Below are positions 706-60,548 of a stretch of DNA of 64,000 nt, in pieces. Position numbers and translations under genes: made by a program. The stretch lies in assembly GCA_015178975.1 (NCBI GenBank), contig WHVD01000071.1:124001-188000 (forward strand), read 5' to 3'. Position 1 is the first letter of the stretch. Each line of letters begins with the position of its first letter. The stretch is from Hysterangium stoloniferum. Lineage: Eukaryota > Basidiomycota > Agaricomycetes > Hysterangiales > Hysterangiaceae. The notes beneath the pieces are model-generated. The model did no database searches. It saw only the letters and a list, made by a program, of their open reading frames with translations, and was not told the origin of the DNA.

Positions 706-2567
706 CTAATTAAACCCTACCGACACACGAGTGGAAGGTGTCGCGACGACACAAAGGAAGGAACGCACGGTGAAATCCACACACTCAAGGCGGGAACTGA
801 TGTATTCGTCATTGGTCGAGCCGCGCATTATGTCACAATGTGGAAGGAGTAAAATGAGACTGGCGATGGGATCGAGGCTGCGCACGGTGGTACACGCGGA
901 TTCGGGCTCGGAAGATCCAGCTATCAGCTTCAGAGTCAACGCGATTATCTGCTCCCCACACCACAGGAGATCCAAATTTGGAATGGTGTGCGTCAGAATC
1001 AGGCTGTAGGAAAATTTCATAGGCGGATGTAAGACAGTGCTGGAAGGTCTAATATTTTGAACGTACCTTACGATGGGCCCAATGAACGAAGAAACGACAT
1101 TCAGCTGGTTGATGTGATCGGAGAGAAGCGTGCTGTCGTCGAAGAAGGCTTTCAAGGAGTAAATACAAATTAGGGAAGGTGGTGTCCTCAAACCCACATG
1201 ACGTGAGAATGAGGCTATATGCATATTTGTGTCGTGCACTAACACCTTCAACACAGCTCCAGCAATATCTCGAAACCATGCATCTTGGTGGATGCAACAC
1301 ACAAGAAGGCGGATAGGGTATCTATAAGACGGATATGCTCGCCGATGACTTTCTCTGTGATGGTTTTTGGTGGGTTGGATGAAATGATGTGATATCGCGA
1401 CGCACGGTTGTAACCAGAATTCAATGCACCCTCTGATCGCCGTGAGCTCCTCTACAGATAGTTGACGCACGTGGCAGATCGCTTCCACGATATAAGCAAG
1501 GCCGAACACGGGAAAGGGATGATCAAATAATTTTCGATAGTTGGCAATAAATGTTGATGCAACCTCTTCAAAGTTGGTGTGCAGCGGTGACTTGACTAAA
1601 ACGTTGTAAAGTGATGACGTAATCGCAGGTGACGCGTCTCTATCTGACCAATAGACACCGGGACACCATACGAAGGCCTCAGCCAAAGATGCCAAAAGCC
1701 AATGGGCAGTGTGACGTTTCCCACTCCGCGGTAAATACACCGGAAAATTGTCTAAAACTATCATCGCTCTTCTCCGAATGTGCCTTGGATATGTGGGTCT
1801 GCGAAAACGTCGGTATTTCGAGTGTATTCAAGATTGACGTTGCGTTATCCCTACCTCAATAGATCCACACTCTCTTGAACTAATCTTCCCAGTCTTGCAG
1901 GCGTGAGATGCTGGTGTGGAAACTTTCTAAAGGCCCCGTCGTCTTGATGCAATCGACTCGTGATTTGCTGGTATATTGTCAGCTTCGCGATCAGTGAAGC
2001 TGTCTTGGCAATGTGAAGGACTTTCATGCCAACCCTTTCCATACCGATTCCACAGAAATACCCGGGGCCAATGTCAATCATTGAAGATGTCCCGACATAC
2101 TGTGAGACCATTCCCCAGTCCTCGGGATGACTGCGATATGGGCTGAGGTTGGCTGTCGTGTGGTGGGATATCCAAGACATGTTAATAACACTCGGTGGGT
2201 CATGGTAGGTCGTTTCTCCTTGCCACTGAAACGTGCAGGACGTGACACAAATACCATGGGAATAGCATCATACTTTACTCACCAACTCCTCAACCCAAGC
2301 CTCTATATGATTTGCAGACAGTTGTATGTGCTTCTCGTCATCGGGCGACAGATAACATAAATTATGTCCGGGTTGGCTACACCTCCATCGTTCGTTGAGC
2401 TTCAACCGGAATCTTTTCCTCATCCCCATCTCAAGCATCTGGTCCTGTTGCGTTGAGCTCAATACACCTGGGGAAACTAAGGGCGGTAGTCCCTCAACAC
2501 CTTCAAGGTCCAACTCAGCGGTTGCCAAATCTTGATTCATCAGCGTCATCTCGTTGAATGTAGACAT
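706..2567 (-). CDS. Copy 1 of an unknown five-exon family, intact (544 aa)
   Basis: Function unknown. Exons, in gene order: 2567-2283, 2225-1855, 1798-1406, 1354-1067, 1003-706; introns 57, 56, 51 and 63 nt, all GT-AG, phases 0, 2, 2, 2. The spliced reading frame is 1635 nt with no internal stop. Introns 3 and 4 are multiples of three without stops here, so exons 3-5 also read as one 352-codon frame; the other copies show these are introns. Exon 1 has the family motif W-x-C-x4-GH-x2-C, a possible metal site. Exons 2-5 are rich in hydrophobic and helical stretches, including 'CCIHQDAWFRDIAGAV' (exon 4) and 'LTLKLIAGSS' (exon 5). No signal peptide or membrane segment is evident. The ATG sits in a MSTFNE start shared by several copies. 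Upstream, the CACGTG block seen in other copies has been deleted. Confidence 0.72.
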
Positions 2568-3830
2568 TGGTGGGTAGCAGTCGTACTTAGACTCGAAGGG
2601 ATGTCATGCTTTTATTGTGCAATCAGTCGGAGGGTTAATTCTACAAATGTACATCTTGGGGCGGTGATTACACAGCATTCACATCAATTCAGCCCTGCCT
2701 TCCTGATTCCCTCACCTTCCTTGAACCATATAGGCTCCAGTGTACTGAGTTGCCTCACTACTTTCTCACGCCTCCCCCTGAAGTCGCACGGCATCTAATA
2801 CTGAATTGTCACCATAGTATAGTATTTTTGGTGTTTTTGAGCATCATAGATGAAAGCAATCCGACGTCTCTGATATTCAAGAAGCGAGATTGCCATGGAT
2901 AATATAAATGCCGTCAAGAGCGATGCTTTCTGACTGCTGCCTTCAACTTGGCGCTGTGAACCTTGAACCTTATCAGGCAGGATTGCGCGCTTCCTGTTTA
3001 ATTTTCTTTCAACAGGAATGTGATTTCTTCATTCACCCTTGCCATATCAAGCGGCTTGAACTTTGTTCTGAGGAAGACAAAGGGGAATACCGGAGATCTC
3101 CAGGTAGGTTTGATTTTGTTGAAATCAGTTCTCGAAGCTCATAAGAATCATAAGGAAAGATCAACAGAATTTCCGTTTCACCTCTCCGACGCATAGGAGG
3201 GAAACACATACAGTGATTACAATAAACATATACTACCTATATATGCCATGTGAACACTAGCTGTGTGGCAACAAAGGACTACATTACATTCAAGCAACAA
3301 TGGGGCGGCACATTGCGGGTGTAGAACCTTCTGCATGCTCCCACAGACGTATGTTATAACACATTGAGCTACGTAAGTGTCTAACTTAAATGTCCGTGGT
3401 TGTGGCGGGTCCACCAGTGGTTGTATTAACTCAACACCTTTTCCTTATTATTTTCTGTCTGTCTGAGTGGAATGTTTCCCCAGAGGCTCGCACTATTCAT
3501 GGATGGAGAATTAATGCGCTTCGACCGAACTATGACAAGGTAGATCAACGACTGTGACCCACCCGTAGCTTGACCTATTCCGGGAAAAGCTCTTCCGGTA
3601 TGTCAAGATTCACCATGCTGTGCCATGCTTATACGTGTCCCTCTTCTGGCATCTTACCGCCCCCTTAATTGCTGGTCAGCATACTGTCCTTTGAATTCCA
3701 AACTGGTCTCTGTAACAGTCCCTCTTAGCTCCCACAAGAGAATCGTTCATCGCAGCTCTGAGTTTGTGGCTCCAATGCATCCTTCATTTTCTCATGTTTT
3801 GATGATTTGTCAGTCGGGGAATTAATGAGG
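2568..3830 (-). promoter_or_regulatory. Upstream region of copy 1
   Basis: No gene is seen. In gene orientation a TATA-like AATAAAAG lies about 45 bp before the ATG. The next kilobase matches the upstream regions of copies 6 (30386-31700) and 9 (57327-58250). The segment of about 60 bp that carries CACGTG in copy 6 is missing near 3010, where 'CTTTCAACA' runs straight into 'GGAATGTGATTTC'. Small frames here are not conserved between copies and are not called. Confidence 0.5.
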
Positions 3831-4679: not shown

Positions 4680-5700
4680 GGATATGCTACTCATACATCA
4701 GTGAAAGGTGTGGCGACCACCAAAACGAAGGGAGGCCAGGGGAAACTAAATGTTCAAGACACTCAATGGTAAACCGGTTGTTGATGCATTGTGCATTTTG
4801 TCTTGATGCCTTGATTTATAAGGCGGCAAACAAGAATTGCGACGGTATTGGGATCATGAGCTGCGTTGCACACGAATTCTGGGTCAGAAGATCCAGATAT
4901 TATTGGCTTCAGTTCAATGGCAATTAATTTTACACATCCGACAACCGCGGCGAATATGGACTCCTTTGAGTGAGACTTAGTGATGAGTTAATTTATTGTG
5001 CAAATGTAAGACAATGGTGGAAGACAAAAAATAGAGAATGTAGTGTACAAGGACCCCATGAGCGAGGAAAAAGCATTCATCAGGTTAATCAGCAGCATAT
5101 TTTGGTTGAAGAAGGTATGTAAGGCGACAACATACAATAAATATTTTGTTGGAAAATCATTGTAAATTCTCAAGGCTGCAATATTGATGTCCATTTCGTC
5201 CACAAATATCTTCGAAACAGTTGCAGAAACATTCTCGAAAATACGAATTTTGTTGGATGCAACGTATGAAAAGCTACATCCGGTGCTGAAGTGGATAGAC
5301 AAGAAACGTTGTAATTGATTTTGTCACGAAGTGTCGCATTCAGAACTACTTGACGCGTGTGACAGGTCAACCAACGGTTCTAGCCAGAATGCAAAGCAAC
5401 CTTGAATGACAGTGCGTCGTTCACAGACAGGTCAGGCAAGTCCCATGTGTTTTCTAGGATCAACGCGCAAAGAGCGCAATAAATCCGGTGTCTTCATAAT
5501 TCAAGGCACGATACATGTCGTGCTATATTAAATACATGCGGATGCAACTTCATTTCATTTGGTAGAGGTGATTATGGACGTATAGAGTAATGATGTAACC
5601 GCAGTTTACGGCTGACGCAGTATGTGAAGTCATGACACATATCATGTATACATTCGAGAGTATGACCTGTGATTCTCGGCACCATAGGGTCACGGTTCTG
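4680..5700 (-). pseudogene. Old decayed family copy (exons 3-5)
   Basis: The reverse strand retains weak similarity to exons 4 and 5 of the intact copies. A frame at 5302-4988 contains a stretch resembling exon 4, with 'DINIAALRIYND' in place of 'DINMHIASLTR' and 'LHTFFNQNMLL' in place of 'LKTFFDDSTLL'. The sequence near 4700-4760 matches the end of exon 5 ('GTGAAAGGTGTGGCGACCAC'). Stops and indels are frequent and exons 1-2 are not found. It is much more diverged than copies 1-10, so it belongs to an earlier round of amplification. A parallel remnant lies at 38.0-39.0 kb. Confidence 0.5.
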
Positions 5701-6141: not shown

Positions 6142-6146
6142 ATCAT

Positions 6147-6440: not shown

Positions 6441-6700
6441 CTGATTTTTATAAAAATAGCTGACGCACGTGGCAGATGACTTTAACGATATTCACAAAGC
6501 CCTCCAATGAGGGAAGAATTTTGACTATCAAAGGATGATAAATTTCTGTCGACTTGTACAATAAAGGTTGATGCAATACCATCAAAGTTGGTGTGCAGTG
6601 GTGATTGGGTGACAGGATGATCAAGTAATAACGTCATTTCAGTTCAAGGATTACTTCTATCTGACCAATCGATGCCGGGACAGCATGTAAAGCTTGAACC
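6441..6700 (-). pseudogene. Exon 3 fragment of the family
   Basis: The reverse strand of this stretch matches the middle of exon 3. The landmarks are 'AGCTGACGCACGTGGCAGAT' (near 6468-6480), 'ATAAAGGTTGATGCAA' and 'TCTGACCAATCGATGCCGGGACA' (6659-6682). The surrounding exons are missing and the frame is broken. A sister fragment lies at 48822-48980, which suggests the two regions were duplicated together. Confidence 0.55.
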
Positions 6701-8075: not shown

Positions 8076-9946
8076 CTAGCATTGATATGAAGGTTCTAAT
8101 TGGACCCTACCAGACACATGGGTGGAAGGCTTGGCGAGCACGCAAAGGAAAGAACGTGCGGTCAAATCTAAACGCTCAAGCCAGTAACTGATGGATTGGT
8201 CATTGGTCGATCCCCGCATTACGTCACAATGTGGAAGGAGACAAACGAGAATGGTGATTGTATCGAGCCTGCGCACTGTGGTACACGCGGATTCAGGGTT
8301 GGAAGATCCAGCTATCAGTTTCAGAGTCAACTCGATTATTCCTTCGCCAGACGCCAGGAGATCCCACTTTGGAATGGTGTGTGTCAGAATCAGACTGGTA
8401 GGAAGGTTTAGCGCTGTAAGGTAAAATATTGTAAAGGTACCTTAAGATGGGCCCAAGGAACGGAGAAACCACATTCAGTTGGTTGATGTGATCGGTGAGA
8501 AGTGTGCTGGTGTTGAAGAAGGTTTGCAAGGCCGACACATCTTCCCACAGTAGATCTGATTTCCCCAAATCAATATTAAGCGTCAATGACGCTATGTTCA
8601 TACTTATGTCGTCCACTAAAACCTTCAATACAGCTCCAGCAATATCTCGAAACCATGCATCCTGGTGGATGCAACACCCGAGCAGGCGTATAGGATAGTA
8701 ATGCAAGGAAAGTCGTTGTGTGTGGTATTGCCTGTGATGGTTTTGGTGGCGAGACTGAAATGATGTGATGATGTCGACGCACGGTTGTAACCAGAATTCA
8801 ATCAACCTTCTGATCGCAGTGAGCTCCTCTACAGATAGTGGACGCACGCGGCAGGTCGCTTCCACGATATCTCCAAGGCCGAAAATGGGTAAGTGATCAA
8901 GAAATTCCGTTAGATAATGTGCGATATGTGTGATAAATGTTGATGCAACCTCATCAAAGCTGGTGTGCAGCGGTGACTTGACTAAAACATTGTAAAGTGA
9001 TGACGTAATCGCAGTTGACGCGTCTCTATCTAACCAACAGACACCGGGACACCACGTGAAGGTCCAAGCCAAAGATGTAATGAGCTGGGTGGTGTGACCT
9101 TTGCTACTCCGCTGCATATGAAGTGAAGACACCCGGAAATCATCAAAAACCATCGCCGCTCGTCTCAGAATGTGAAGGGGATATGTGGGTCTACGAGACA
9201 TCGGTATATCGGGTGTATTCAAGATTGACGCTGAATTATCCCTACCTCATTAAATCAACACTCTCTTGAACTAGCCTTCCCAGTCTTGGCAGCGTGAGAT
9301 GCTTGTGTATAAACTTGTTAAATGCCTTGTGTTCTTGATACAATCGGCTCGTGATTTGCTCGTATATCATCAGCTTTGTGATCAGTGAAGCTGTCTTGGC
9401 ACTGCGAAGGACTTTCATCCCAACCCTTTCCAAACCTACTCCACAGTAATACCCAGGGCCAATCTCAATACTTGAAGATGTCCCAAGATTCCGTGAGATC
9501 ACTCCCCAGTCCCCAGCATGACTGCGATATGGGCTGAGCTTAGCTGTCTTGATGGCAGATGTTCTAACAACAGTTGGTGGGTCATGGTAGCTCGTTTCTC
9601 CTTTACACTGAAATGTGCAGGATGTGACACAGATCACATGGAAATAGCAGTATACTTTACTCACCCACTCGTCAACCCAAATATCCATATGGTTTGAAGA
9701 TAGTTGTATATGCTCGTCATCCGGGCCCTGATAACACAAATCATGTCCGGGTTCGTTACAGCTCCATCGTTCTTTGAGCTTTAACCGGAATATTTTCCTC
9801 ATCCCCATCTCGATGATATGGTCTTGTTGCGCTGAGCTCAGTACGCCTGTGGAAACTAAGGGTTGCAGCTCCTCGATGCTCCCAAGGTGGATCTCAGCTG
9901 TTGACAAATTGTGATTCCCCAGAGTCCTCTCGTTGGCAGTCGACAT
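8076..9946 (-). CDS. Copy 2 of the five-exon family, intact (553 aa)
   Basis: Exons in gene order: 9946-9665, 9607-9246, 9190-8783, 8731-8441, 8394-8076; introns 57, 55, 51 and 46 nt. The spliced frame is 1662 nt without stops. The fourth intron is 46 nt instead of the usual 63 and is not a multiple of three, so the reading frame of exon 5 is kept only if it is spliced; this is the best internal proof that intron 4 is real. Intron 1 has no stop, so exons 1 and 2 also read as one 234-codon frame. Exon 1 keeps the C-x4-GH-x2-C motif. The C-terminus is seven residues longer than in copies 1 and 6 because the usual stop is lost. Function unknown; no neighbouring gene helps. Confidence 0.72.
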
Positions 9947-12907: not shown

Positions 12908-12917
12908 AAGGTTATAT

Positions 12918-13401: not shown

Positions 13402-15244
13402 ATGTCGACTTCAAACGATCCCACTCTGAGGAATCACGATTTGGCAACGGCTGAGATCCACTCTGAAGGCATAGAGGAGCTGCCCCCCTTAGTTTTCCAA
13501 GGTATATTGAGCTCACCGCCACCGGAACAGATGATTGATAAGGGGAAGAGGGAAAGTTTCCGGTTGAAGCTCAGGGAACGATGGAGCTGTAACGAACCTG
13601 GACATGATTTATGTTATCGGCCCCCCGTTGACGAGCAGCACATACAACTGTCTGAAAACCATATAGAGGTTTGGGTTGAAGAGTTGGTGAGTAAAACATG
13701 ATGCTGCTCTCATATGGTGCGCCTAAAATCCCATACATTCCAGTGTCAAGGAGAAACGAGCTACCATGATCCACCAATGATTGTTAGGGTATCCACCAAC
13801 AAGGCATCCAACCTCAGCCCATACCGCAGTCATGCCGAGGACTGGGGAATAATCTCAAGGAATCTTGGGACATCTTCAAGTATTGAAATTGGCCCCGGGT
13901 ATTACTGTGGAGTCGGTATGGAAAGGGTTCCGATGAAAGTCCTTCACCGTGCCAAGACAGCTTCGCTGATGGCAAAGCTGAGAATATACAAGGAAATCCT
14001 AAGTCGACTGTATCGAGAAGACCAGGCCTTGAGCAAGTTTCTGCAAAAGCATATTACGCTGCGAAAACTGGGAATGATAGTTCAAGAGACTGTTGATTTA
14101 ATGAGGTAGGGATAGCTTAGCGTTAATCTTTGAATACACTCATATCTGGCCGTAGACCCATATATCCAATTCAAGTTCGGAGAAGAGCCGCGTTGGTTTT
14201 CGATGATTTCCCGGCATCTTCACTTCGGAGTAACAAAGGTCACATTTCCCACTTGATGACATGTTTAGCTTGGACCTTCACGTGGTGTCCCGGCGTTCGT
14301 TGGTCAGATAGAGACGCGTCAACTGCGATTACGTCATCACTTTACAACGTTTTAGTCAAGTCACCGCTGCACACCAACTTGGATGAGGTTGCATCGACAT
14401 TTATCATACACATCGCGGGTTATCTACCAGGATTGCATAATACGTTACCGCTTATCGGCTTTACGAGTATCGTGGAAGCGATTTACCACATGCGTCAGCT
14501 GTCTGGAGAGGAGCTCACTGCGATCAGAGGCTTCATTGAATTCTGGTTACAACCGTGCGTCACGACATCATTACATTTCATCCTGCCCACCAAAACCATA
14601 ACAGACAACATCACACACAACGACGTTCCTTTTATCAATATTCTATACGGCTTCTCATGTGCTGCATCTACCAAGATGCATGGTTTCGATATATTGCTGG
14701 AACTGTATTGAGGGTTCTGTTGGACGACATAAACGTGCATATATCACCATTGAGACTTGATCTTAACTTGGAGACATTGTATTCACTGTATCGGAGTATT
14801 TGCTCCTTGCAAACCTTCTTCGACGACAGCACGCTTCTCACCGATCACATCAACCAGTTGATTGTGGTTTCTTCGTTCATTGGGCCCATCGTACGGTACG
14901 TTCACAATAATCATTTTTCAGCCCCAACTTATATCTACCCATTAAACTGTCCTACCAGTCTGATTCTGACGCACACGAATCCAAGTTGGGATCTCCTGGA
15001 GTCTGGTGAGCGCATAATGGCGTTGACTCTGAAACTGATAGCTGGATATTCCGACCCCGGATCCGCGTGTACCACAGTGCGCAGCCTCGATACCATAGCC
15101 ATTCTCGTTTCTCTCCTTCCACATTGTGACACAATGCGCCGCTCGACCAATCACCAATCTATCAGTTGCCGGCTTGAGCGTTTAGATTTCACCGCACGTT
15201 CTTTCCTTTGCGTGGTCGCCACACCTTGTGTCGGTAACGTTTAA
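13402..15244 (+). CDS. Copy 3 of the five-exon family, intact (540 aa)
   Basis: Exons 13402-13686, 13744-14105, 14156-14554, 14605-14895, 14959-15244; introns 57, 50, 50 and 63 nt. The spliced frame is 1623 nt without stops. Intron 3 (50 nt, GTGCGT..AACAG) is not a multiple of three, which explains why exons 3 and 4 appear in different frames in the raw sequence. In the protein, W61, C63, H68 and C71 form the exon 1 motif. The C-terminus ends 'CVGNV', shorter than in most copies and identical to that of copy 7, its inverted partner. Function unknown. The gene lies 479 bp downstream of a CACGTG element that is overlapped by a LINE target duplication. Confidence 0.75.
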
Positions 15245-15640
15245 TTAGACCCCCCCATATCAGTGTTGCGGAGCATGGTTCCCCTGACAAAGGTCTTGCA
15301 CCATCAATTGGACACACTTCCTCAAAATTTCTTTTCGATAATCCCGTGCACATCTCAACCAAACTAGGGGGAGTTCAATAGCGTCGCCCTTTAATTAACT
15401 TACTTTGCAGCTGGAGGTGCAAATTGTACACAGCTATATAGTTTGAGACAATGTAAGAGCGCATATAATCACTTTTTCTCATCGCTGCGAGCCCTGCACC
15501 TTGTGCACATACATGTGTTGAATACATTCGCGGCCATTACCCGTGGTTAGAATAACACCCGAATCATGAACGTACTCATGTTAAATAAAATCTCACTGGA
15601 TCAGGCGCATCGTATCTTCAAGCTAGTGTTCAATCGACAT
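15245..15640 (+). repeat. Downstream flank of copy 3
   Basis: No gene. This is the family downstream flank with one recognisable monomer (about 15430-15540). It matches about 32860-33253 in inverted orientation almost base for base. Confidence 0.5.
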
Positions 15641-16202: not shown

Positions 16203-16744
16203 TCAATATGGAGAGTCAGCTATTCTATGACTATGTTTATGCCGTCCACTATAATCTTCAATATAGCAAGGCACGAAAGGCCGGTGAGAAGTATACAGTA
16301 ACGACGTGATTGGAGTTGACGTATTACTTCTATCTTGACTGATCGATGCCGGGGGACCATATAACCCAAAGATGTCATAAGCTTGGCAATGAATGTTCGG
16401 TGGGCGGTGGTATTTTGTCTCCTCTTGGGATTGAAACATAGAGTCTATCCACAGTGTACACGATGACGATACTTTATTTCGTGCACCATCCCTTGACCCG
16501 ATTTCCACGTCTTCTTGAGACAGTGGTACATGCTGGTCGTCATTGTGGCCCGGTCACATAACTCATGTACAGGTTTGTTACAGGTCCATGGTTCTCCAAG
16601 CTTCTCTCCCAATATCTCTCTCATTCCCGTCATTATGATGTACTTCTTTTGTTCTGAACTCGATACACCCGGGGAAGCCAACAGTGGTAGCTCCTCAGTT
16701 CCTTCAAGAAGGGTCTCAGCCGTTGCCATCCCGTGAGTCCTCAA
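16203..16744 (-). pseudogene. Truncated, rearranged family copy
   Basis: The reverse strand starts with a recognisable exon 1 (16744 downwards; 'LLEGTEELPLLASPGV'), with the C-x4-GH-x2-C motif altered to C-x4-VH-x2-C. This is followed directly by pieces resembling exon 2 ('KYHRPP') and exon 3 ('TPITSLLYT'), with most of both missing. Stops interrupt it. The inverted duplicate at 31929-32279 holds the same rearranged core in a single open frame, so the rearrangement predates the inverted duplication. Confidence 0.5.
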
Positions 16745-18208
16745 CGTCGTTTAGTTGAGGGTATACATTGGTGTATCACAGGTGTACTCGTACCAAAGGG
16801 ATGGCTGACCTTTTATGGTGCAGTCAGCCAGAGAGTTGATTCCACCGCATTGCATTGACCATGATCAGAGCTGGGTTTTCTCGCAATGGTGCAGGGAACC
16901 TTTATCCATCCAACTATGGATTTAAACACTATGACAATAAAATTATAAAGCGGGGAGTAGACTGGGAACAGTGCAAACACGAATGGAAAACAAACAGACA
17001 ATGGGAAAATGACATCCAAAAGCACACAGGGCGAGCTTGGATGATGCCTGAAATCTAACACATTCATAGTTTATAGTATATTTCACACTAGATTATGCGG
17101 TACTTTACAGTATCGGATTAATATCAAGGTAAGTTCTAAACACGTCTATTGAGTAATGCCCACTCAACAAACCCAGCAGGAACATACTGCCGTCCCCCCT
17201 GGGTTTGAGACGCATTATAGCCAGATTAGTAAATTATCATAGTTGTTACCATATTTTCATCCAGTAATTAAGAACCCATACAGTGAGTTTTAACCGTCGC
17301 TGCGGGCTCTGGAGTTTCAACTTGATGATGTGGTACATTTGGGATACATTCGTAGTCAATGGTAGAATCCTGACCATATGAGGCTGAGAATCATAGGTCA
17401 TACTGTCAAACCTATACATCCTATTTGTGATGCCTTCACATACTGCGTCAGCCGTCAACTGAGAATACATCATTACACTATACGTAAATAACCACATCTA
17501 CCAAGTGGGAGAAGGTTGCATCTACATTTACTTTAAACATCCACAGAAATTTATCGTGCTTTAATCCTTTAAAATTATAAAGATACTTTATTGTCCCTTT
17601 CGCATTAATCGTAGGAAATACATGCAAAGGGGAATGATTTTTTCTTGCCTCATGGAAAGTCCTTTTTAGACTATTCTCTATTTTTTCTCGTCCACTATTG
17701 TTCCACATTCGCACATGAAATTAACTCACCTCTTTAATCCTCACTCAAATGAGTCCGTATTGGCCGCAGTTGTCGGTTGGGGAAAGACTAATTGCGGTAG
17801 CACTGAAGCTAATATCTGGATCTTCTGACCCAACATTCGCATCCACCCCAGCGCACGATCTTAATACCGTCACAAGTATTTTTTGCTCTTACACATCACT
17901 ACATACTTGGAACAAACTAAGAGGAGGAGCTCACTATTTCTGCTTTAGTAGTTCGCTTTGAAGGGCGATTAACCCTTATAAACCTGTATAGTTTGAAGGA
18001 ATCTCAGAGCACATACAATGGCTTCTTATTATAATTACAGCTCTGTGCTGAGTCTGTGACAAATGTTGGGGCGATGATGCCTTCCAATTTGTAGGACTCG
18101 TCATTGGCTATTGTTCTCAGGGTGTATATAAGTAGTATAGGATTCTGGTAATAACGGTATATTTTTGCTACCTATGAGACACAGGTCAAACAGACATTAT
18201 ATTGAGCC
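16745..18208. repeat. Mixed decayed repeats with an exon 5 remnant
   Basis: No intact gene. About 16855-17090 is an inverted copy of the 6.15/39.35 kb repeat. 17250-17720 resembles decayed exon 3-4 sequence on the minus strand. 17749-17961 (+) translates to an exon 5-like stretch ('ALKLISGSSDPTFAST', compare 'TLKLIAGSSDPESACT') that soon breaks. 17980-18200 resembles the downstream-flank monomers. These are remnants of at least two old copies in opposite orientation. Confidence 0.4.
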
Positions 18209-19658: not shown

Positions 19659-21506
19659 ATGTCTATTTTAAATGAGGTGACCTTGGGGAATCGCGATTTG
19701 GCAACGGCAGAGTCGTACCTTGAAGGCGCTGAGGAACTACCACCCCTCGTTTCCCCAGGTGCATTAAGCTCAGCGCAGCAAGACGAGATCTTTGAGATGA
19801 GGATGAGGGAAAGATTCCGGTTGAAGCTCAAGGAACGATGGAGATGTAGCGAACCCGGACATGTCTTATGTTATCGACCCCCCGATGAAGAGCAGCACAT
19901 ACAACTGTCTGCACACCATATAGAAGTGTGGGTTGAGGAGTTGGTGAGTAAAGTATGATGCCATTTCCATGTGATTTGTGTGACATCCCGCACATTTTAG
20001 TGGCAAGGAGAGACGACCTACCATGACCCACCCACTGTTGTTAAGATGTCTTGGAGATCCAACAACACGGCAACCAACCTCAGCCCATATCGCGGTCATG
20101 CCGAGGACGGACGAAGTGTCTCACAGTATGTTAGAACATGTTCCAGTATTGAAATTGGCCCCGGATATTACTGTGGAGTCTGTTTGGAAAGGGTTGGGAT
20201 GAAAGCCATTCACATTGTTAAGACAGCTTCGCTGATCGCGAAGCTGACCATATACCAGCAAATAATGAGTCGATTGTATCAATCCGGGGCCTCTGGCAAG
20301 TTACTACACAAGCATATCACGCTGCCAAGACTTGGAAGACTAGTTCAATACAGTGTTGACTTAATAAGGTAAGGATAGCTCAGCGTCAAGCTTGAATACA
20401 CTCGAAATACCGATGTTTTCGCAGACCCACATATCCACCCCACATTCGGGAAAGAGCGAAGATGGTTTTAAACGAAGTCATCTTTTATCCACCGTGGGAT
20501 AGGAACGGTCACACTTCCCAGATTATTACATCTTTGGCTGCGGCCTTCATTTTTAGTCCCGGTGTCTTATGGTCGGATAGAAGCAATGTGTCAACTACTA
20601 TTACGTCGTCACTTTGCAACGTTTTAGTCAAGTCACCGCTGTACACAAAATTTCATCAGGTTGCATCAACGTTTATCACACAAATCGCCGGTTTTCTATC
20701 ACAATTTCATGATTGCTCACTCATAAGTGGCTTTGTGTATATCGTGAAAGCGATCTGCCACATGCGTGAACTATCTGTAGAGGAGCTCACGGCGATCAGA
20801 TGGTTCATTGAATTCTGGTTACAACTGTACTTCGAGACATCACTTCACTTCATCCTGCCCACGAAAATCATGACAGACAAAATCATCGACAGCGAGTTTA
20901 CTTGGATGAATGTCCTATAAAGCTTGTCGTGTGTTGCATCCACCAAGATGCATGGTTTCGAGATATTGCCGGAGCTGTATTGAATGTTTTAGCGGACGAC
21001 GTAAACATGCATATAGCGTCATTGACACGTCATATTGATCGGTGGACGTCAGTGCCACGTCACGATGATTGCTGGACATCATATTCATTGTATTGGAGTA
21101 TTGGCTGCTTGAACACCTTCTTCCACGACAGGACGCTTCTCACCAATCACATACAATGTTTGACCTTCCAGCACCGTCCTATATCCGCCTTTGAAACATT
21201 CCTACCAGCCTGATTCTGACGCACACGTTTCCACAGTAGTATCTCCTGCAGTGTGGTGAGGGCGTAATCACGTTGACTCTGAAGCTGATAACTGGATCTT
21301 TCGAGCCCGAATCCGCGTGTACCACAGTGCGCAGCCTCGATACCATTGCCAATCTCGTTTCTCTCCTTCCACATTGTGACTTAATGCGCAGCTGGCCCAA
21401 TGACAAATCCACCAGTCACGCCCTTGCGCGATTGGATTCCACCGTGAGTTCCTTCCTTTGTGTCGTCGCGACACCTTCCACTCGTGTGTCCGTGGGGTCT
21501 AATTAG
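19659..21506 (+). pseudogene. Copy 4 of the five-exon family, damaged at the exon 4 / intron 4 border
   Basis: Exons 1-3 are open: 19659-19943, 20001-20368, 20425-20826, with introns of 57, 56 and 50 nt after them. Exon 4 starts at 20877 and stays open until about 21150. There a deletion of roughly 50 bp has removed the end of exon 4 and the GTACGT donor of intron 4. The frame then runs into non-homologous residues and stops at 21213. Exon 5 (21209-21506) is itself intact in another frame. Exon 4 also has a short insertion ('RWTSVPRHDDCWTS'). A C-terminally truncated product of about 460 residues could still be made, so expression is not excluded. Confidence 0.6.
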
Positions 21507-23072: not shown

Positions 23073-24890
23073 ATGTCTACGTTCAACGAGATGACCCTGG
23101 CAAATCACGATTTGGAAACGGCTGAGTCGCACCTTGAAGGCGTTGAGGAACTACCACCCTTAGTTTCTCCAGCTGTATTGACCTCGGTGCAACAGGACAA
23201 GATGAATGAGGCATGGATGAGGAAAATATTCCGGTTGAAGCTCAGGGAACGATGGAGCTGCAATGAACCAGGTCATGATCTCTGTTATCGGGCCCCCGAT
23301 AACGAGCAGCACTTGCAGCTGTCTGCAAACCATATAGAGGTTTGGGTTGACGAGTTGGTGAGTAAAGTGTAATGCTATTTCCATAGGATCTGTGTCACAT
23401 CCAGCACATTTCAGTGTCAAGGAGAAACGAGCTACCATGACCCACCAACTGCGGTCAAGATATTCACCGACAAGAAATCCAACCTCAGCCCATATCCCAG
23501 TCATGCCAGGGACTGGGAAATGATATCACGGTATCTTGAGACATCCTCAAGTGTTGCAATTAGCCCCGGGTATTTCTGTGGAGTCGGTATGGAGAGGGTC
23601 GGGATGAAAGTTCTTCACAGTGCCAAGACAGCTTCGCTGATGGTAAAGCTGTCAATATACAAGGAAATCACAAGTCGATTGCATCGAGAAGACGGGGCCT
23701 TTAACAAGTTTTTACAAACGTATTTGACACTGCCAAGACTGGGAATACTAGTTCAAGAGAGTGTTGATTTAGTGAGGTAGGGATAACAAAGCGTCATGCA
23801 CGAAATACTCATGTCACAGGCCCTAGACCCACATACCCGGCTCAAATTAGGAAACGAGCGATAATGGTTTTGCAGAACTTCGCAATGTATCCACCGCGTA
23901 CACAGCGGGGGAAGAGATGTACCACTCAGGTTATGACATCTTTGGCGAGACGCGTCAACTGCGATTACGTCATCACTTTACAACGTTTTAGTCAAGTCGC
24001 CGCTGCACACCAATTTTGATGAGGTTGCATCGACATTTATTATACACATTGCCGGTTATCTAAAATGATTTCATTATTTCTCACCCCTTTAGCCCCTTGT
24101 GTATCTCGTGGAAGCGGTCTGCCACGTGCGCCAACTATCTGTAGAGGAGCTCACGGCGATCAGAGGTTACATTGAATTCTTGTTACAACCGTGCGTCGCG
24201 ACATCACACATCATGTCATCCAGGCAGAACCATAACAAACAGAGTGACCGGCAACTATCTCTCCATTATGACGATCCTATACGGCTTCTCGTGTGTTGCA
24301 TCCACCAAGATGCATGGTTTCGAGATATTGCTGGACCTGTATTGAAGGTGTTAGTGGACGATACAAATATGAATATAGCGCTATTGTCACGTCATGTCCG
24401 TTTGAGCACATCACGTTCCCTATTTTGGAGTATTGAGTGCTTGAAAACCTTCTTCGACGACAGCACGCTTCTCTCCGATCACATAAACCAGCTGAGTATG
24501 GTTTCTCCGTTAATTGGGCTCATCGTGCGGTACGTTCACAATATTTGACTTTCCAGCACCGTCTTACATCCGCCTACGACACTTTCCTACAGCCTGATTC
24601 TGACGCACACGATTCCAAATTGGAAACTCCTAGTCTGTGGGGAGCATATAATCGCGTTGACTCTGAAGCTGATAGCTGGATATTCCGACCCCGAATCCGC
24701 GTGTACTACGGTGCGCAGCCTCGATCCCATCGCCATTCTCATTTTACTCCTTCCACATTGTGACATAATGCGAGGCTCTACCAATGACGAATACATCCGT
24801 TCCCGCCTTGAGTGTTTGGATTTCACCGTGCGTTCCTTCCTTTGTGTCGTCGCGACACCTTCCACTCGTGGGTCGGTAGGGTCTAATTAG
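23073..24890 (+). pseudogene. Copy 5 of the five-exon family, frameshifted in exon 3
   Basis: Exon 1 (23073-23357), intron 1 (57 nt), exon 2 (23415-23776) and intron 2 (50 nt) are intact. Exon 3 starts at 23827 but lacks 41 bp near 23954 relative to copy 6, which shifts the frame; further stops occur near 24065-24095. Exon 4 (its 3' end at 24529), intron 4 (24530-24592) and exon 5 (24593-24890) are intact. The closest relative is copy 6, its inverted partner, which is open throughout, so the lesions are recent. Confidence 0.65.
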
Positions 24891-37949: not shown

Positions 37950-38970
37950 AACTCTGATATAGAGTTTGAAGGCGATTCTACTCATATATTAGTGAAAGGT
38001 GGGCCACCACAAAAAGGAAAGGGAGGGACGGCTGAGGGAAACTAAATGTTCAAAATACTCAACGGTGGAGCGGGCGTTGATGCGTTGTTCATTGTGTCTT
38101 AATGTCGTGACGTGTAAGGGAAAAAAAAGGATTTTCGACGGCATTGAGATTGTGAGCTGCGGTGAATGGGAATTTCGGGTCGGAAGATCATGATATTAGC
38201 TTTGGCGCAATCCCAAATAGTCTTTCCCCAACCGACAACTGTGGCCAATATGGACTTATTTGAGTGAGAATTAGGGAATGAGTTGGTTTAATGTGAAAAT
38301 ATAGAACAATAGTAGACGAGATAAAATAGAGAATATAGTGTAAAAAGGACTCCGTGAGCCAGGAAAAATCATCCCCTGGTTAATCAGCAGTGTATCGTTG
38401 TTGAAGAAGGTATGCAAGGTGATAAAATTCAGTAAATAATTTGTCGGAAATTTATTATGAACCTTGAAGGGGAGTATTAATGTCCCTGTCCTCTACAACG
38501 TTTCTTTGATGCATAGACAAGAAACGATGTTCTTCATTTTTTCACCAAGTGTGGTATTTGAGGCTACTTGAGGCTTGTGACAGGACAACGCACAGGTCTA
38601 ACTAGAACTGAAAGCCACCGCAAATGACAGTGAGTCCGTTCACGTTCACAGACAGGTCAGGCACGGTATATGTATTTCCTACGACAAATGCAAAGGGGAT
38701 AATAAATCCAGTGTCTTATAGTTCAAAAGGGTCAAAGCATGATATATATTGGGGGTATTTAAGGGAGATGTAGATGCAAGCTCATCCTACTTGGTAGATG
38801 TGATTATGGACTCATATAGTAATGATGTACTCGCAGTTGACGGCTGACGCAGTATGCAAAACCATCACAAGTAATATGTATAACTTTGACAGTATGACCG
38901 CTGATTATCGGCCTCATATGGTCAGGATTCTGCTACAAGTCAAACGGAATCTTCCAGCCTCATTCAGGAT
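37950..38970 (-). pseudogene. Old decayed family copy, sister of 4.7-5.7 kb
   Basis: The order of remnants is the same as at 4680-5700: the exon 5 end near 37990, exon 4 traces near 38340-38530 ('GTTGAAGAAGGTATGCAAGG' at about 38400) and exon 3 traces to 38900. The frame is destroyed. Together with the flanking repeats this shows a direct duplication of the 3.7-6.4 kb block to 37.0-39.6 kb, or the reverse. Confidence 0.45.
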
Positions 38971-47928: not shown

Positions 47929-47976
47929 ACCAGTCCGCTGTTAATTGCACACTGCGTTGCAGCGTGGGAAGGCGGG

Positions 47977-48255
47977 TGTAATGGGAGCGGACCTGGTGGC
48001 AGACTTGGCACGGAGCGGTCTACCGCCATTGTCTCAGGGGGTAAAGAGAGGGTAGATAATTTTCTGATCATTACACTGTTTCATTTCTATTATCTGTCGC
48101 TAGGGGGTTTAGTCTACGAATGCTAGCATAAATAGGGAAGCCACCCATTAGCTACAGTAGTTATTTCAAATTGGAGCCTATTCCTACTCTGCTCGTTCCT
48201 CTTCATAAGAAGCTCCAACCGAAGGATTACGCTATCTTTAAAGCCGAACCTTACA
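47977..48255 (+). repeat. 3' LTR of the Ty3-type element
   Basis: 279 bp, TGTAATGGG..CCTTACA, followed by the target duplication AATAC. Confidence 0.9.
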
Positions 48256-50253: not shown

Positions 50254-52172
50254 TTATGAGGAAGTGTATCCAATCGATGGTTCAAGACCTTTGTCAGAGC
50301 AAGCATGTTGCTGCAACACTAATATGGTGGTATAATTAGATCCTGCCGATACACCAGTGGAAGGTGTGGCGACGACGCATAAGAAGGAATTGGCGGTGAG
50401 AACGAGGCCTTGGTAAATCTTGGATTCTTCGTTCATTGAGCTACGGATCACGACACAACGTGTGAGGAGAGAAACGAGAATGGGAATGGTATCGAGGCTG
50501 CGCACTGTGCTACACGCCGATTCGGGTTCGGAAGATCCAGCAATCAGTTTCAGAGTCAGCTCGATTATGCCCTTACCAGAATCTAGGAGATGCCAACTTG
50601 GATTGGTGTGCGTCAGAATAAGGCTGGTAGAAGGTTTCATAGGCGGATGTAAGACGGTGCCAGAAGGGAAAACATTGTGAACGGACCTTAGGATGGGCCC
50701 AATGAACGAAGAAACGCCATTGAGCTGGTTGATGTGATGGGTGAGAAGCGTCGTGTCGTCGAAGAAGGTTTTCAAGCAGTAAATAGTCCAAAATAGGGAA
50801 TTTGATGTCCTCAAATCAATGTGACGTGACAATGACGCAATATGCAAATTTGTGTCGTCCAATAAAACCTTCACTACAGCCCCAGCAAAATCTGGAAACG
50901 ATGCATCTTGGTGGATGCAACACACGAGAAGCCGTATAGGACCTTCATACCAGTAAAGTCGTTGGGGGTGATTTTGTCTGTTATAGTGTTGGTGGGCAGA
51001 ATGCAATGATGTCATGTCGTGACGCACGGTTGTAACCAGAATTCAATGAACCCTCTGATCGCCGTGAGCTCCTCTACATATAGTTGACGCATGTGGCAGA
51101 TCGCTTCCACAATATACACAAGGCCGATCATCGGAGAGATCATGATAACCGGCGATTTGTATGATAAATGTTGATGCGACCTCATCGAAGTTGGTGTGCA
51201 GCGGCGACTTAAAACGTTGTAAAGTGATGACGTAAGCGCAGTTGACGCGTCTCTATCTCCCCAACGAACGCCGGGATACGACTGGAAGCCCCAAGCCAAA
51301 CATGTCATGACCAGGGTAGTGTGTCCTTTGTTACTCCGCTGAATCTTGATGCGTGAATAAAACGGGCACGATTCCAAAACCATCCACGCTCGTTTCTGAA
51401 TTTGAAGCGGGTATGTAGGTCTACGACTCAGATATGAGTATTTCAAGGTTCAAGGTATTAAATTATTGACGCCGAGTTATCCCTACCTCACTAAATCAAC
51501 ACTTTCTTGGACTAGTCTTCCCAGTCTTGGCAGCGTGAGATGCTTGTGTAGAAGCTTGCTAAAGGCCCTGTCGTCGTCTTGATCCAATCGACTGATGATT
51601 TGCTGGTATATTGTCAGCTTTGCCATCAGCAAAACTGTCTTGGCACTGTGAAGGACTTTCATCCCGACCCTCTCCATACCGACTCCACAGTAATACCCGG
51701 GGCTAATTTCAACACTTGAAGACGTCTCAATATACCGTGAGATCATTCCCCAGTCCGTGGCATGACTGGGATTCTTCTTGGTGGATATCTTAACAACAGT
51801 CGGTGGGTCATGGTAGCTGGTTTCTCCTTGACACTGTAATGTGCAGGATGTAACAAAGATCCTATGGAAATAGCTTTGTACCTCACTCACCAACTCGTCA
51901 ACCCAAACCTCTATCTGGTTTGTAGACAGTTGTATGTGCTGCTCGTCATCGGGGGTCCGATAACATAAATCATGGCCGGGTTCGTTACAACACCATCGTT
52001 CTCGAAGCTTCTCCCTGAATATCTCTCTCATCCCCGTCCTGATTATCTGGTCCCGTTGCTGTGAACTCAATACACCTGGGGAAACTAAGGGTAACTCCTC
52101 AACGCCTTCAAGGTAGGCCTGAACCGTTGCCTCATCATGATTCCCCATAGTTCTCTCGTTAAAGGTAGACAT
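50254..52172 (-). CDS. Copy 8 of the five-exon family, open but with an altered exon 3 (560 aa)
   Basis: Exons in gene order: 52172-51891, 51833-51487, 51420-51028, 50977-50687, 50623-50254; introns 57, 66, 50 and 63 nt. The spliced frame is 1683 nt without stops. In exon 3 a 4-bp deletion near 51210 shifts the frame and a second indel near 51140 restores it. About 35 residues in the middle ('SRRCTPTSMRSHQHLSYK') therefore differ wholly from the family consensus, which keeps 'VKSPLHTNFDEVASTFI' there. Intron 4 has a GTCCGT donor instead of GTACGT. The C-terminus is extended by about 24 residues past the usual stop. It may be a pseudogene in an early stage. No CACGTG is found upstream. Confidence 0.55.
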
Positions 52173-55159: not shown

Positions 55160-57029
55160 CTAATCAGACCATACCGACACACGAGTGGAAGGTGTTGCGA
55201 CGACACAAAGGAAGGAACGCACGGTAAAATCCAAACACTGAATGCGTAAACTGATGGATTTGTCATTGGTCGAGCCGAGCATTATGTCACAATGTGGAAG
55301 GAGAAAAATGAGAATGGCGATGGTATCGAGGCTGTACACGCGGATTCGGGCTCGGAAGATCCAGCTATCAGCTTCATGGTCAACGCGATTATGCGCTCAC
55401 CACACCACAGGACATCCCAAATCGGAATCGTGTGCGTCAGAATCAGGCTCGTAGGAAAGTTTCATGGGCGAATGTAAGACGGTGCTGGAACGGAAAATAT
55501 TGTGAACGTACCTTACTATGGGCCCAATGAACCAAGAAACCACATTCAGCTGGTTGATGTGATCGGTGAGAAGCGTGCTGTCGTCGAAAAAGGTTTTCAA
55601 GCAGTAAATACTCCAAAATAGGGAATGTGATGTCCTCAAATCAATATGACGTGACAATGACACTATATGCATATTTGTGTCGTGCACTAAAACCTTTAAT
55701 ACAGCTCCAGCAATATCTCGAAACCATGCATCTTGGCGTGTGCAACACACTAGAAGCCGTATAGGATTATCATACAAGTAAATTCGGTTTGGGTGACACT
55801 GTCTGTTATGGTTTTGGTGTGCTGGATGAAATGATGTGATGTCGCGACCCACGGTTTTAACCACAATTCAATGCAACCTCTGATCGCAGTGAGCTCCCCT
55901 ACAGATAGTTCCCGCACGTGGCAGACCGCTTCCACGAGATACGGAAGCCCGATAATGGGTAAGGGATTATGAAATTCTGTTATATAACGTGCGATGTGTA
56001 TGATAAATGTTGATGCAACCTCATCCAAGTTGGTGTGCAACGGTGACTTTACTAAAACGTTGTAAAGTGATCATGTAATCGCAATTGACATATTTCCATC
56101 TGACCAATAGACACCGGGACACCATATGAACGCCGAAGCCAAAGAGAGCATGAGGCGGGTAGTGTGAGCTTTTCTACTTCGTATATAAAGTAGAGGCACC
56201 GCGAAAAGATCATCTAACACCATCGGGGCTCTTCTTCGAATTTGAAGTGGATATGTGGGTCTACGAAGACGTCGGTATGTCGAGAGTATTCAACATTCAC
56301 CCTGTGTTATCCCTACCTCATTAAATCGACAGTCTCTTGGAGTATTCTTCCCAGCCTTGGTAGCGTTAGATGCTTGTGTAGAAACTTTCTGAGCGCCCCG
56401 TTGTCTCCCTGCAATCGAGTCATGATTTGCTGGTATATTGTCAGCTTTTCCATCAGCGAAGCTGTCTTTGCACTGTAAAGGACTTTCATCCCAACCCTTT
56501 CCAAACCCACTCCACAGTAATATCCGGGGCCAATTTCAATGCTCGAAGATGTCCCAACATACTGTGGGTTTATTCCCCAGTTATCAGCATGACTGCGATA
56601 TGGGCTGAGATTGGATGTCCTGTTGGTGGATATCCCCGACATCTTCACAACAGTCGGTGGGTCATGGTAGCTCGTTTCTCCTTGACACTGAAATGTGCCG
56701 GATGTGACACAGATCACATGGAATAGCAATTATACTTTACTCACCAACTCCTCAACCCAAACCTTTATATGATTTGCAGACAGCTTTAAGTGCTGATCGT
56801 CATCGGGGGCCCGATAACATACATCATGACCTGGTTCGTTACATTTCCATCGTTCCCTGAGCTTTAACCGGAATCTTGTCTTCGTCCACACCTCATTGAT
56901 CTTGTCCTGTTGCGCTGAGAGCAATACAACTGGGGGAACTACGGGCGGTAGGTCCTCAACGCCTTCAAGGGAGGACTCAGCCATTTCCAAATCGTAATTC
57001 CCCACAGTCATTTCGTTGAACGTAGACAT
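55160..57029 (-). pseudogene. Copy 9 of the five-exon family, stop in exon 3 and frameshift in exon 5
   Basis: Exons by homology: 57029-56745, 56687-56317, 56260-55853, 55802-55512, 55447-55160; introns 57, 56, 50 and 64 nt. Exons 1 and 2 are open. Exon 3 has an in-frame TGA at 56073-56071, where other copies have a Ser codon. Exon 5 has lost 10 bp near 55336, which shifts the frame before the conserved 'LLPHCD' block. The acceptor of intron 4 is CTACGAG instead of CTACAG. The TATA-like TATAAAGG is kept. Directly upstream lies a second, truncated exon 1. Confidence 0.65.
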
Positions 57030-57159: not shown

Positions 57160-57326
57160 TAGCTCCATGGTTCCTTGAGCTTCAAAGAATCTTTTCCTCG
57201 TTCTGTTGCACTGCGCTCAACACACCTGGGGAAACTAAGAGTGGTAGTTCCTCAACGACTTCAAGGTACGACTCAGCCGTTGCCAAATCGTGATTCCTTA
57301 GTATTATTTTGTTGAAAGTAGACATT
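57160..57326 (-). pseudogene. Extra exon 1 fragment upstream of copy 9
   Basis: In minus orientation the family start codon lies at 57326, followed by exon 1 sequence with two small deletions up to the 'CTCAAGGAACCATGG' codons near 57165. The sequence then jumps into the proximal upstream region of copy 9 ('AGGTATGACAAGCTGTG'). The distal upstream region, with CACGTG at 57809 (483 bp away), therefore belongs to this fragment and not to copy 9. An unequal exchange between two copies explains the structure. Confidence 0.6.
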
Positions 57327-58923: not shown

Positions 58924-60548
58924 CTAATTTGACCCTGCCGACACACGAGTGGAAGGTGTGGCGACCACGGAAAGGAAAGAACGCGCGGTGAAATCTAACC
59001 GCTGAAGCCGGGAATTGACGGAGTGGTCATTGGTCGAGCCGCGCATTATGTCACAATGTGGAAGGAGAGAAACGAGAATGGCGATGGTATCGAGGCTGCG
59101 CACGGTGGTACACGCGGACTCGGGGTCGGAATATCCACCTATCAGTTTCAGAGTCAACGCGATTATGCGCTCACCAGACTCCAGGAGATACCAACTTGGA
59201 TTCGCTTGCGTCAGAATCAGACTGGTAGGAAAGTTTCATGGGCGGATGCAAGACAGTGAGGAAAGGCAAATATTGTTAACGTACCGCACGATGGGACAAA
59301 TGAACGCAGAAACTACATTCAGCTCATTCATGTGATCAGCGAGAAGCGTGCTGTCGTCGAAGAAGGTTTGCAAGGAGTCAATACTCTGACACAGTGAATA
59401 TGATGTTCCCAAATCAATATGGCGTGCCAATGACGCCATATCCACGTTTACATCGTCCACTATGCACTTGAATACTGCTCCAGCAATATCTCGAAACCAT
59501 GCATCTTGATGGATGCAACACACGAGAAGCCGTACATGATATTCATACCAAAAATCTACGTTTTGACAATTTTTTCTATTATGGTTTGTGTCGGCGGAAT
59601 GTAAATTTGTGATCTGGCGACGTACGGTTGTAAAACCCACAATTCAATGCAACATCTGATCGCAGTGAGCTCCACTACAGACAGCTGACGCACGTGGCAG
59701 ATCACTTCCACTATAGAGGCAAGGCCGATAATGGTGATCACAAAATTCTGATAGATAACGGGCGATGTGTATGATAAATGTTGATGCAACCTCATCAAAA
59801 TTGGTGTGCAGGGGCGACTTGGCGAACACGTTGTAAAGTGATGACGTAATAGCAGATGACGCGTCTCTATCTGACCAATGAACGCCGGGACACCATATGA
59901 AGGCCGAAGCCAAAGATGTCATGAGGTGGCAAGTGTGACCTTTCTTCCTGGGTGAATAAAACGCGTACCACTCCAAAACCATCCACGCTCGTTTCCGAAT
60001 TTCAGCCGGGTATATAGGTCTACGACTCAGACATGAGTATTTCGAGTGTATTCAATGATTGGCGCTGAGTTATCCCTACCTTAATAAATCCACACTCTCT
60101 TGAACCAGGTTTCCCAGTCTTGGCAGCGTGAGACGCTTGTTTAGAAACTTGCCAAAGGCACCGTCGTCTTGATGCAATCGGCTCATTATTTGCTGGTATA
60201 ATGTCAGCTTGGCGATCAGCGAAGCTGTCTTGGAAATGTGAAGGACTTTCATCCCAACCCTTTCCAAACAGACTCCACAGTAATACCCAGGGCCAATTTC
60301 AATCCTTGAAGTTGTCCCGACATACTGTGAGACCATTCCCCAGTCCTCTGCATGACTGGGATATGGGCTGAGGTTGGTTGTCGTGTTGGCGGATATCTTA
60401 ACAACAGTCGGTGGGTCATGTAGCTCGTCTCTCCTTGACACTGAGACAAGTGCGGGATGTGATGCAAATCGCATGGAAACATCATTATACTTGACTCACC
60501 AACTCATCAACCCAAACCTCTACATGGTTTCCAGACAGTTGAATGTGC
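58924..60548 (-). pseudogene. Copy 10 of the five-exon family, cut by a copia element
   Basis: Only the last 49 bp of exon 1 remain (60548-60500), next to the copia LTR. Intron 1 is 59 nt. Exon 2 (60440-60080) lacks one base in the 'SYHDPP' codons. Exon 3 starts at 60019 and has a frameshift near 59745 plus a small insertion near its end. Exon 4 is open, intron 4 is the usual 63 nt (59284-59222), and exon 5 (59221-58924) is intact with the standard length. The rest of exon 1 should lie beyond the copia element, outside the window. Confidence 0.65.

What the first reader, a model, noticed from the sequence alone, without database searches (positions are those of the whole stretch)
706..60548. 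An apparently undescribed, actively amplifying five-exon gene family (ten copies, five of them open)
The sequence shows ten paralogues with the same four intron positions and phases (0, 2, 2, 2). Copies 1, 2, 3, 6 and 8 give uninterrupted 540-560 residue proteins only under this model. I recognise no known domain. No transposase, reverse transcriptase or other mobility gene lies in the unit, yet the units (gene plus long conserved flanks) are duplicated in both orientations and in all stages of decay. It could be an accessory gene amplified by segmental duplication, or the cargo or coding part of an unknown mobile unit.
Basis: partly seen in the sequence, partly recalled or inferred. Interest (0 to 1): 0.8.

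Follow-up and report, generated by a model that had tools for sequence, protein, structure and literature searches.

The report
Huge diversifying five-exon fungal gene family
The ten copies in this window belong to a family of hundreds of spliced genes in one fungal genome, whose proteins keep a constant front end while selection keeps changing the back end, as if they recognise something; no described protein family matched them in the libraries searched.

Summary
Ten related genes lie at 706-60549, with four introns of phases 0,2,2,2; the same introns recur in 62, 58, 55 and 57 of 62 loci modelled. Of the five copies called open, w1 and w6 are clean, w2 and w3 differ at their last residues, and w8 is open but frame-shifted inside exon 3.

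The family exceeds the window: 271 places at least 2.2 kb apart on 28 contigs, broken copies included (capped searches). Pfam (7 members) and the PDB gave no match.

New result: exons 1-2 are constrained, with W61, C63, H68, C71, H80 and W91 invariant in 30 of 30 models. Exons 3-5 hold 39 positions that look diversified by selection, exon by exon on separate trees, at shared positions in two disjoint gene sets, and beyond six recombinant null simulations. Front and back halves have different histories.

Best reading: a birth-and-death family of two-part recognition-type proteins, spread by segmental duplication and recombination. No transposon signature was found, but ends could not be excluded. 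Function, fold and metal binding are inferred; structure predictions failed.

The parts
706..2567 (-). copy w1, open (544 aa); exons 2283-2567, 1855-2225, 1406-1798, 1067-1354, 706-1003
8096..9946 (-). copy w2, open (553 aa, stop near 8076) but frame-shifted at its extreme C-terminus; exons 9665-9946, 9246-9607, 8783-9190, 8441-8731, 8096-8394
13402..15248 (+). copy w3, open (540 aa, ends a little early); recent inverted duplicate of w7 (94-98% identical segments)
19659..21506 (+). copy w4, broken (in-frame stop, intron 4 not found)
23073..24890 (+). copy w5, broken (deletion and frameshift in exon 3)
28524..30385 (-). copy w6, intact (545 aa); reference for residue numbering; exons 30101-30385, 29682-30043, 29224-29631, 28885-29169, 28524-28821
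33250..34919 (-). copy w7, broken (frameshifts, deletion in exon 3); inverted partner of w3
50332..52172 (-). copy w8, open (560 aa, C-terminal extension of 26 codons beyond 50332) but with two frame changes in exon 3 relative to the family
55160..57029 (-). copy w9, broken (stop in exon 3, frameshift in exon 5)
58924..60549 (-). copy w10, broken, lacks the 5' end (homology starts at position 236 of the gene)
30101..30385 (-). exon 1 of w6: constrained front module with W61, C63, H68, C71, H80, W91 invariant in 30 of 30 models
28524..29631 (-). exons 3-5 of w6 (with introns 3 and 4): back half with hypervariable positions in residues 228-275, 307-323, 354-362, 405-416, 458-465, 518-521
4820..5263 (-). 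relic fragment of the family (60% identity, gene positions 1270-1724)
6559..6686 (-). relic fragment (gene positions 899-1023)
16518..16768 (-). relic fragment of exon 1 (gene positions 1-252)
17691..17884 (+). relic fragment (gene positions 1524-1716)
32172..32266 (+). relic fragment (gene positions 1251-1345)
38102..38366 (-). relic fragment (gene positions 1474-1738)
57197..57325 (-). second exon 1 fragment (gene positions 1-129) upstream of w9

Best explanation
This is a very large, lineage-expanded family of ordinary spliced nuclear genes (271 places counted, capped searches) under birth-and-death evolution. Each intact gene makes a protein of about 545 residues in two parts. The front (exons 1-2, residues 1-216) is nearly constant and holds an invariant R-W-x-C-x4-H-x2-C-x(7-8)-H-x2-L...W motif; I infer a small metal-binding or adaptor module. 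The back (exons 3-5, residues 217-545) alternates invariant stretches with six clusters of positions under diversifying selection, spaced 43-67 residues; I infer a mostly helical, perhaps solenoid-like recognition surface. New genes arise by segmental duplication in both orientations, recombination between copies pairs front halves with other back halves, and many copies decay. The most likely mode of action is recognition: the front couples to a common output, and the back binds something that keeps changing, such as non-self or a parasite, or many different partners. Shown: family, conserved intron pattern, two selection regimes, recombination, duplicated segments. Inferred: expression and splicing in the cell, recognition role, helical fold, metal binding.
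For: Size: 271 places at least 2.2 kb apart on 28 contigs, from 42 of the 56 matches, 150 of 151 and 150 of 150; the exon searches scored only 150 of 1162 and 150 of 1389 candidates. Splicing pattern: introns in 62, 58, 55 and 57 of 62 loci; introns diverge more than exons. Constraint in front: M0 omega 0.55 (exon 1) and 0.58 (exon 2); 40-codon windows down to 0.24 around the C/H motif; motif residues invariant in 30 of 30 models, which include three with a frameshift elsewhere (w2, w8, L040). Diversification in back: M2a beats M1a with 2dlnL 176, 153 and 106 for exons 3, 4 and 5, each on its own tree, against 4.9 and 10.3 for exons 1 and 2; seven of seven segments of at most 48 codons on their own trees give 28-97. 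Six recombinant null simulations of 135 codons gave 0.1-17.4. Disjoint sets A (9 genes) and B (21 genes) name the same positions, 15 shared out of 23 and 36, p 5e-11 if sites are independent. Recombination: each half's data reject the other half's tree, AU p 4e-15 and 1e-5. Duplicated segments.
Against: No expression data and no functional assay. No fungal protein database was available, so relatives elsewhere are untested; in viral contigs 99 stretches matched a pattern and none was confirmed. Recombination inflates the selection test: 3 of 6 null simulations passed the nominal 5% line (8.2, 15.7, 17.4), so exon 2 (10.3), the whole front half (17.2) and even set A's exons (31.4, 22.4, 19.9) are less secure than their p-values; real recombination may be heavier than simulated. 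At B-chosen sites, direct counts in set A give pN/pS 1.15 (all pairs) and 1.42 (four disjoint pairs; Fisher p 0.20), fast but not significantly above 1. Profile comparison of six proposed repeats gave no support: 0 of 15 pairs scored above the best of their shuffled controls, one tied. The regular spacing of clusters is weak and post hoc (p 0.02). AlphaFold models are poor: mean pLDDT 32 for exons 3-5 from one sequence, 55 for exon 1 from 8. The codon-model code is my own, not PAML.
Confidence: 0.55

Rival explanations
1. A selfish, killer-type family that works like the wtf spore killers of fission yeast: copies spread because carriers destroy or outcompete non-carriers, and diversify because killers and antidotes must keep matching.
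For: Many copies, half of them broken (31 of 62 modelled loci carry a stop or frameshift), exchange between copies, rapid change, LTR elements in the window. wtf genes share copy-number change, pseudogenes, non-allelic gene conversion and LTR neighbours (PMC6526906, passages seen).
Against: [quoted passage not shown] The best 19-residue hydropathy windows reach only about 1.6 (4 proteins tested). wtf counts are 25-38 per isolate, far fewer than here.
Confidence: 0.15
2. The gene is the coding part or passenger of an unknown mobile unit that inserts gene plus flanks.
For: Hits on 28 contigs, among them large contigs with only one hit listed (C533, C57, C135, C179, C518). The C533 copy shares flanks with window copies from about 0.2 kb upstream, where its homology to them stops although they share more among themselves, to at least 0.37 kb downstream; that stop could be an end of a unit or a truncation.
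Against: No transposase, integrase or reverse transcriptase in the unit: Pfam 0 of 7 members; among all 23 window ORFs of 150 aa or more, mobility domains above Pfam's cut-off occur only in the ORFs of a Gypsy and a Copia element. Apparent ends seen in one copy are not shared. No target-site duplication or terminal repeat seen by eye at two recent inverted pairs. Near-identical stretches of 7.5-9.5 kb extend well beyond one gene.
Confidence: 0.13
3. A substrate-adaptor family (as F-box or BTB proteins are) in which the constant front docks to a ubiquitin ligase and the variable back picks targets; a specific form of the recognition reading.
For: Same division into constant short front and variable long back.
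Against: No F-box, BTB, RING or other Pfam domain at E<=10 in 7 members.
Confidence: 0.12
4. A decaying repeat array of little function, kept open only because most copies are young.
For: Five of ten window copies are broken; recent duplications exist.
Against: 31 of 62 loci are open, and the 30 aligned models differ pairwise by 12-45% in protein, where neutral copies would almost never be stop-free; invariant motif residues.
Confidence: 0.05

Closest known systems
Fungal NOD-like receptors, HNWD family of Podospora (PMC4986451, passages seen)
   Same: Hypervariable C-terminal region under positive selection at particular positions, with exchange between family members; NLRs are abundant in Agaricomycetes (72 hits per species in that paper).
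   Different: No NACHT/NB-ARC domain and no WD, ANK, TPR or HEAT match here; internal repeats not detectable; one architecture in the 62 loci modelled.
wtf meiotic driver genes of Schizosaccharomyces pombe (PMC6526906, passages seen)
   Same: Multicopy, introns kept, many pseudogenes, non-allelic gene conversion, segmental duplication near LTRs.
F-box and other adaptor expansions of basidiomycetes (recalled, not from a call)
   Same: Large lineage-specific expansion with constant front and variable back.
   Different: No F-box or BTB domain found.
Unannotated basidiomycete proteins with a W-x-C..H..C..H..L..W..PP front motif (recalled, not testable here)
   Same: The front motif looks familiar to me from hypothetical proteins of mushroom-forming fungi.
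   Different: No comparison could be run; treat as a lead only.

Membership tests
Fungal NOD-like receptor (STAND) | NACHT or NB-ARC nucleotide-binding domain | tested here: not met
   Pfam, 7 of 7 members without any match at E<=10
Fungal NOD-like receptor (STAND) | C-terminal WD, ANK, TPR or HEAT repeats | tested here: not met
   No Pfam match; 0 of 15 repeat pairs above their shuffled maximum in hhalign
Fungal NOD-like receptor (STAND) | diversifying selection at particular positions of the C-terminal region | tested here: met
   own code, recombination can inflate the test
wtf meiotic driver | alternative in-frame start near the beginning of exon 2 | tested here: not met
   first in-frame Met at residues 107-159 (exon 2 starts at 96) in 30 of 30
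wtf meiotic driver | several transmembrane segments (recalled) | tested here: inconclusive
   top hydropathy windows 1.57-1.63 in 4 proteins
wtf meiotic driver | kills spores that lack it | not testable with these tools
   needs crosses
Transposable element | encoded transposase, integrase or reverse transcriptase | tested here: not met
   (all 23 window ORFs of 150 aa or more; 7 family members)
Transposable element | defined ends with terminal repeats or target-site duplications | tested here: inconclusive
   none seen by eye at two recent inverted pairs; dispersed copies could not be read far enough
F-box / BTB adaptor | F-box or BTB domain | tested here: not met

The most novel reading that the evidence does not exclude
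A NOD-free receptor repertoire of a fungus, probably a mushroom-former: hundreds of genes sharing a C/H front module and a hypervariable helical back half, assembled and reshuffled by recombination, that serve non-self recognition (somatic incompatibility, or defence against viruses and mobile elements), a process whose mechanisms in basidiomycetes were described in 2021 as completely unknown.
Probability: 0.3. Interest if true: 0.88.

Novelty: new variant of a known kind. Interest (0 to 1): 0.62.

Why it matters
The mechanisms of somatic incompatibility in basidiomycetes were described in 2021 as completely unknown (PMC8229728, passage seen). A family with hundreds of members, a fixed front and dozens of apparently positively selected positions in the back is the kind of gene set one would look for, and it gives exact positions and genes to test. 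If the family proves selfish instead, it would be the first large killer-type family I know of in mushroom-forming fungi (recalled). Either way it warns that repeat-rich regions of such genomes can hold large gene families that no domain library names.

Tried and rejected
One search aligned loci in mixed orientation; its table is meaningless and was replaced. The 3' 'boundaries' at positions 4420 and 4466 of L001 are not ends of a unit: other copies share sequence beyond them. The apparent 5' end near window 3005 is a variable stretch inside longer homology. Ends of two recent inverted pairs showed, by eye, no target-site duplication or terminal repeat. Internal repeats in the back half: not supported by hhalign. 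Structure predictions were too poor for a fold search, so none was run. Telomere association cannot be judged: five exact telomere repeats occur only on contigs C97 and C112; the C533 copy lies about 15 kb from its contig end but the C57 copy is internal. Relatives in viral contigs: none. Papers: seven searches; some searches were aimed at such a family and their listings showed no description of it (two returned nothing, 62 one unrelated paper; one listed 15 of 35), at comparisons; only open-licence papers are held. Three papers were seen in passages only.
Full report
WHAT WAS CHECKED. The window is G000:C524:124001-188000 of a 111-Mb assembly in 554 contigs. The genome gives 18 matches to the hydrophobin model, which matched none of 14 control genomes, and 116 matches to Pkinase_fungal, a model that also matched 4 of 14 control genomes, all four bacteria, 2 of the 14 over its cut-off. 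From recalled knowledge I take this to point to a mushroom-forming basidiomycete, weakly; its name is unknown. Self-comparison shows a family of related segments in both orientations.

GENE MODEL. In an alignment of 30 genomic copies one frame per exon is nearly stop-free throughout; the other two collect stops, unevenly. Copy 1 splices to 544 residues with introns of 57, 56, 51 and 63 nt; carried over to the 30 copies, these boundaries show GT in 120 of 120 and AG in 109 of 120. A splice-aware protein-to-DNA alignment (own script, GT-AG introns only) against w6 for 62 distinct loci finds introns within 2 residues of 95, 216, 352 and 447 with phases 0, 2, 2, 2 in 62, 58, 55 and 57 of 62. 31 of 62 have no stop and no frameshift, on 11 contigs; start codons were not checked, and some lack ATG at the aligned place (L005, L008, L012). 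In seven of the 31 the program places one intron differently (L026, L050, L056) or adds a fifth (w3, L006, L016, L054). The 62 are the best hits of two searches plus four chosen fetches, not a random sample. In the window, w1 and w6 are clean; w3 ends a little early; w2 is shifted at its last residues; w8 is open but out of frame for a stretch of exon 3; five are broken. Introns diverge more than exons, but the first 130 bp downstream are as similar as exons (0.19). Neutral change would almost never leave such frames open.

SIZE. DNA search lists 56 matches; searches with exon 1 and exon 5 peptides give 151 and 150 matches, with only 150 of 1162 and 150 of 1389 candidates scored. I entered 42 of 56, 150 of 151 and 150 of 150 places; merged at 2.2 kb they give 271 on 28 contigs, 57 of them on contig C388 alone. 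One search was not used. Broken copies and pieces count; a gene split by an insertion could count twice; and the assembly may hold two nuclear types, so the number per haploid genome may differ. The searches were capped, so more copies are likely.

SELECTION. Pairwise counting (NG86) gives median dN/dS 0.64 (0.47-1.20) for 12 open copies, 0.62 for five window copies and 0.69 (0.43-0.95) for 21 copies from other contigs. This hides two regimes. A window at the C/H motif reaches 0.24; windows near residues 299-335 exceed 1. A codon site model (M1a/M2a, own code, F3x4, branch lengths scaled from a nucleotide tree) gives 2dlnL 17 for the front half and 464 for the back half, and per exon on its own tree for 30 models 4.9, 10.3, 176, 153 and 106 for exons 1 to 5, with 39 positions above posterior 0.95 in exons 3-5 and one in exon 2. 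All seven back-half segments of at most 48 codons are significant on their own trees (2dlnL 28-97). Six null simulations with recombination among three trees gave 2dlnL 0.1-17.4; three of six passed the nominal 5% line, so recombination does inflate the test and small values mean little. Splitting the genes into the C524/C157 clusters (A, 9 genes) and the rest (B, 21 genes), exons 3, 4 and 5 give 31, 22 and 20 in A and 139, 84 and 70 in B; the sets name 15 common sites out of 23 and 36 (p 5e-11 if sites were independent; they are clustered); exons 1-2 in A give nothing, and were not run for B. Leaving out the frame-shifted w8 changes little. Simple counts at B-chosen sites in A give pN/pS 1.15 to 1.42 against 0.66 to 0.68 for other exon 3-5 codons; the excess over 1 is not significant by itself (Fisher p 0.20).

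RECOMBINATION AND SPREAD. Front and back halves give conflicting trees; each half rejects the other's tree. Three contigs share 7.5-9.5 kb at 99.2-99.7% identity around a family gene (the longer figure is limited by what was fetched), and w3/w7 and w5/w6 are recent inverted pairs. No transposon ends were found and, of all 23 window ORFs of 150 aa or more, only those of a Gypsy and a Copia element carry mobility domains above Pfam's cut-off. Dispersed copies could not be read far enough to exclude ends: a decayed copy on C533 carries family flanks, but its homology to the window copies stops about 0.2 kb upstream.

PROTEIN. No Pfam model matches any of 7 members at E<=10 and no PDB chain matches the profile. 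R60, W61, C63, H68, C71, H80, L83, W91 and P106 are invariant in 30 of 30. The hypervariable positions fall into six clusters, spaced 67, 43, 51, 52 and 58 residues (spacing p 0.02, post hoc). I read this as a helical, perhaps solenoid-like surface; profile comparison of the putative repeats does not support it, and AlphaFold models are too poor to say.

MECHANISM. The constant front and hypervariable, recombining back fit a recognition family best. The nearest parallel is the HNWD family of fungal NOD-like receptors, where hypervariable repeats under positive selection are exchanged between members (PMC4986451, passages); but no NOD domain or known repeat was found, so membership fails. The wtf spore killers share copy-number dynamics and gene conversion (PMC6526906, passages), but the alternative start near the beginning of exon 2 is missing in 30 of 30. 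The recognition reading is inference; the selection and recombination results are measured, with the cautions above.

VERDICT. The family is real, intron-bearing, very large, partly decaying, and shows a clear two-regime pattern of selection. What it recognises, if it does, is unknown.

Noticed in passing
window 39655-48255: A Gypsy-type LTR retrotransposon (gag zinc knuckle, protease, RT, RNase H, integrase and Tf2-like SH3 matches) with 279-nt LTRs 97% identical and an apparent 5-bp target-site duplication, inserted between w7 and w8.
   Followed up: partly
window 60947-63856: A Copia-type element (RVT_2, integrase core) on the minus strand next to the truncated 5' end of w10 at 60549; whether it caused the truncation was not resolved.
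   Followed up: partly
L061, L062, L063 (contigs C316, C63, C547): Stretches of 7.5-9.5 kb 99.2-99.7% identical on three contigs, each with an open family gene: very recent segmental duplication or haplotype copies.
   Followed up: partly
contigs C388, C257 and C11 of the assembly: A matching pair of family hits, about 2.64 kb apart, lies near the end of C388 (611-614 kb), at the start of C257 (1-4 kb) and inside C11 (82-85 kb): overlapping contig ends or one more duplicated segment.
   Followed up: no
window about 12915 (w3), 22735 (w5), 30740 (w6), 35415 (w7): A stretch with TATCACGTGACC (E-box-like CACGTG) 0.34-0.5 kb upstream of the start codon in these four copies and several loci (L010, L011, L012, L014, L015), absent or altered in others such as w1 and w2; possible promoter element.
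   Followed up: no
window 3695-5155 and 37010-38450: A second repeat pair (79% over 1.5 kb) in which only relic fragments of the family were found.
   Followed up: no
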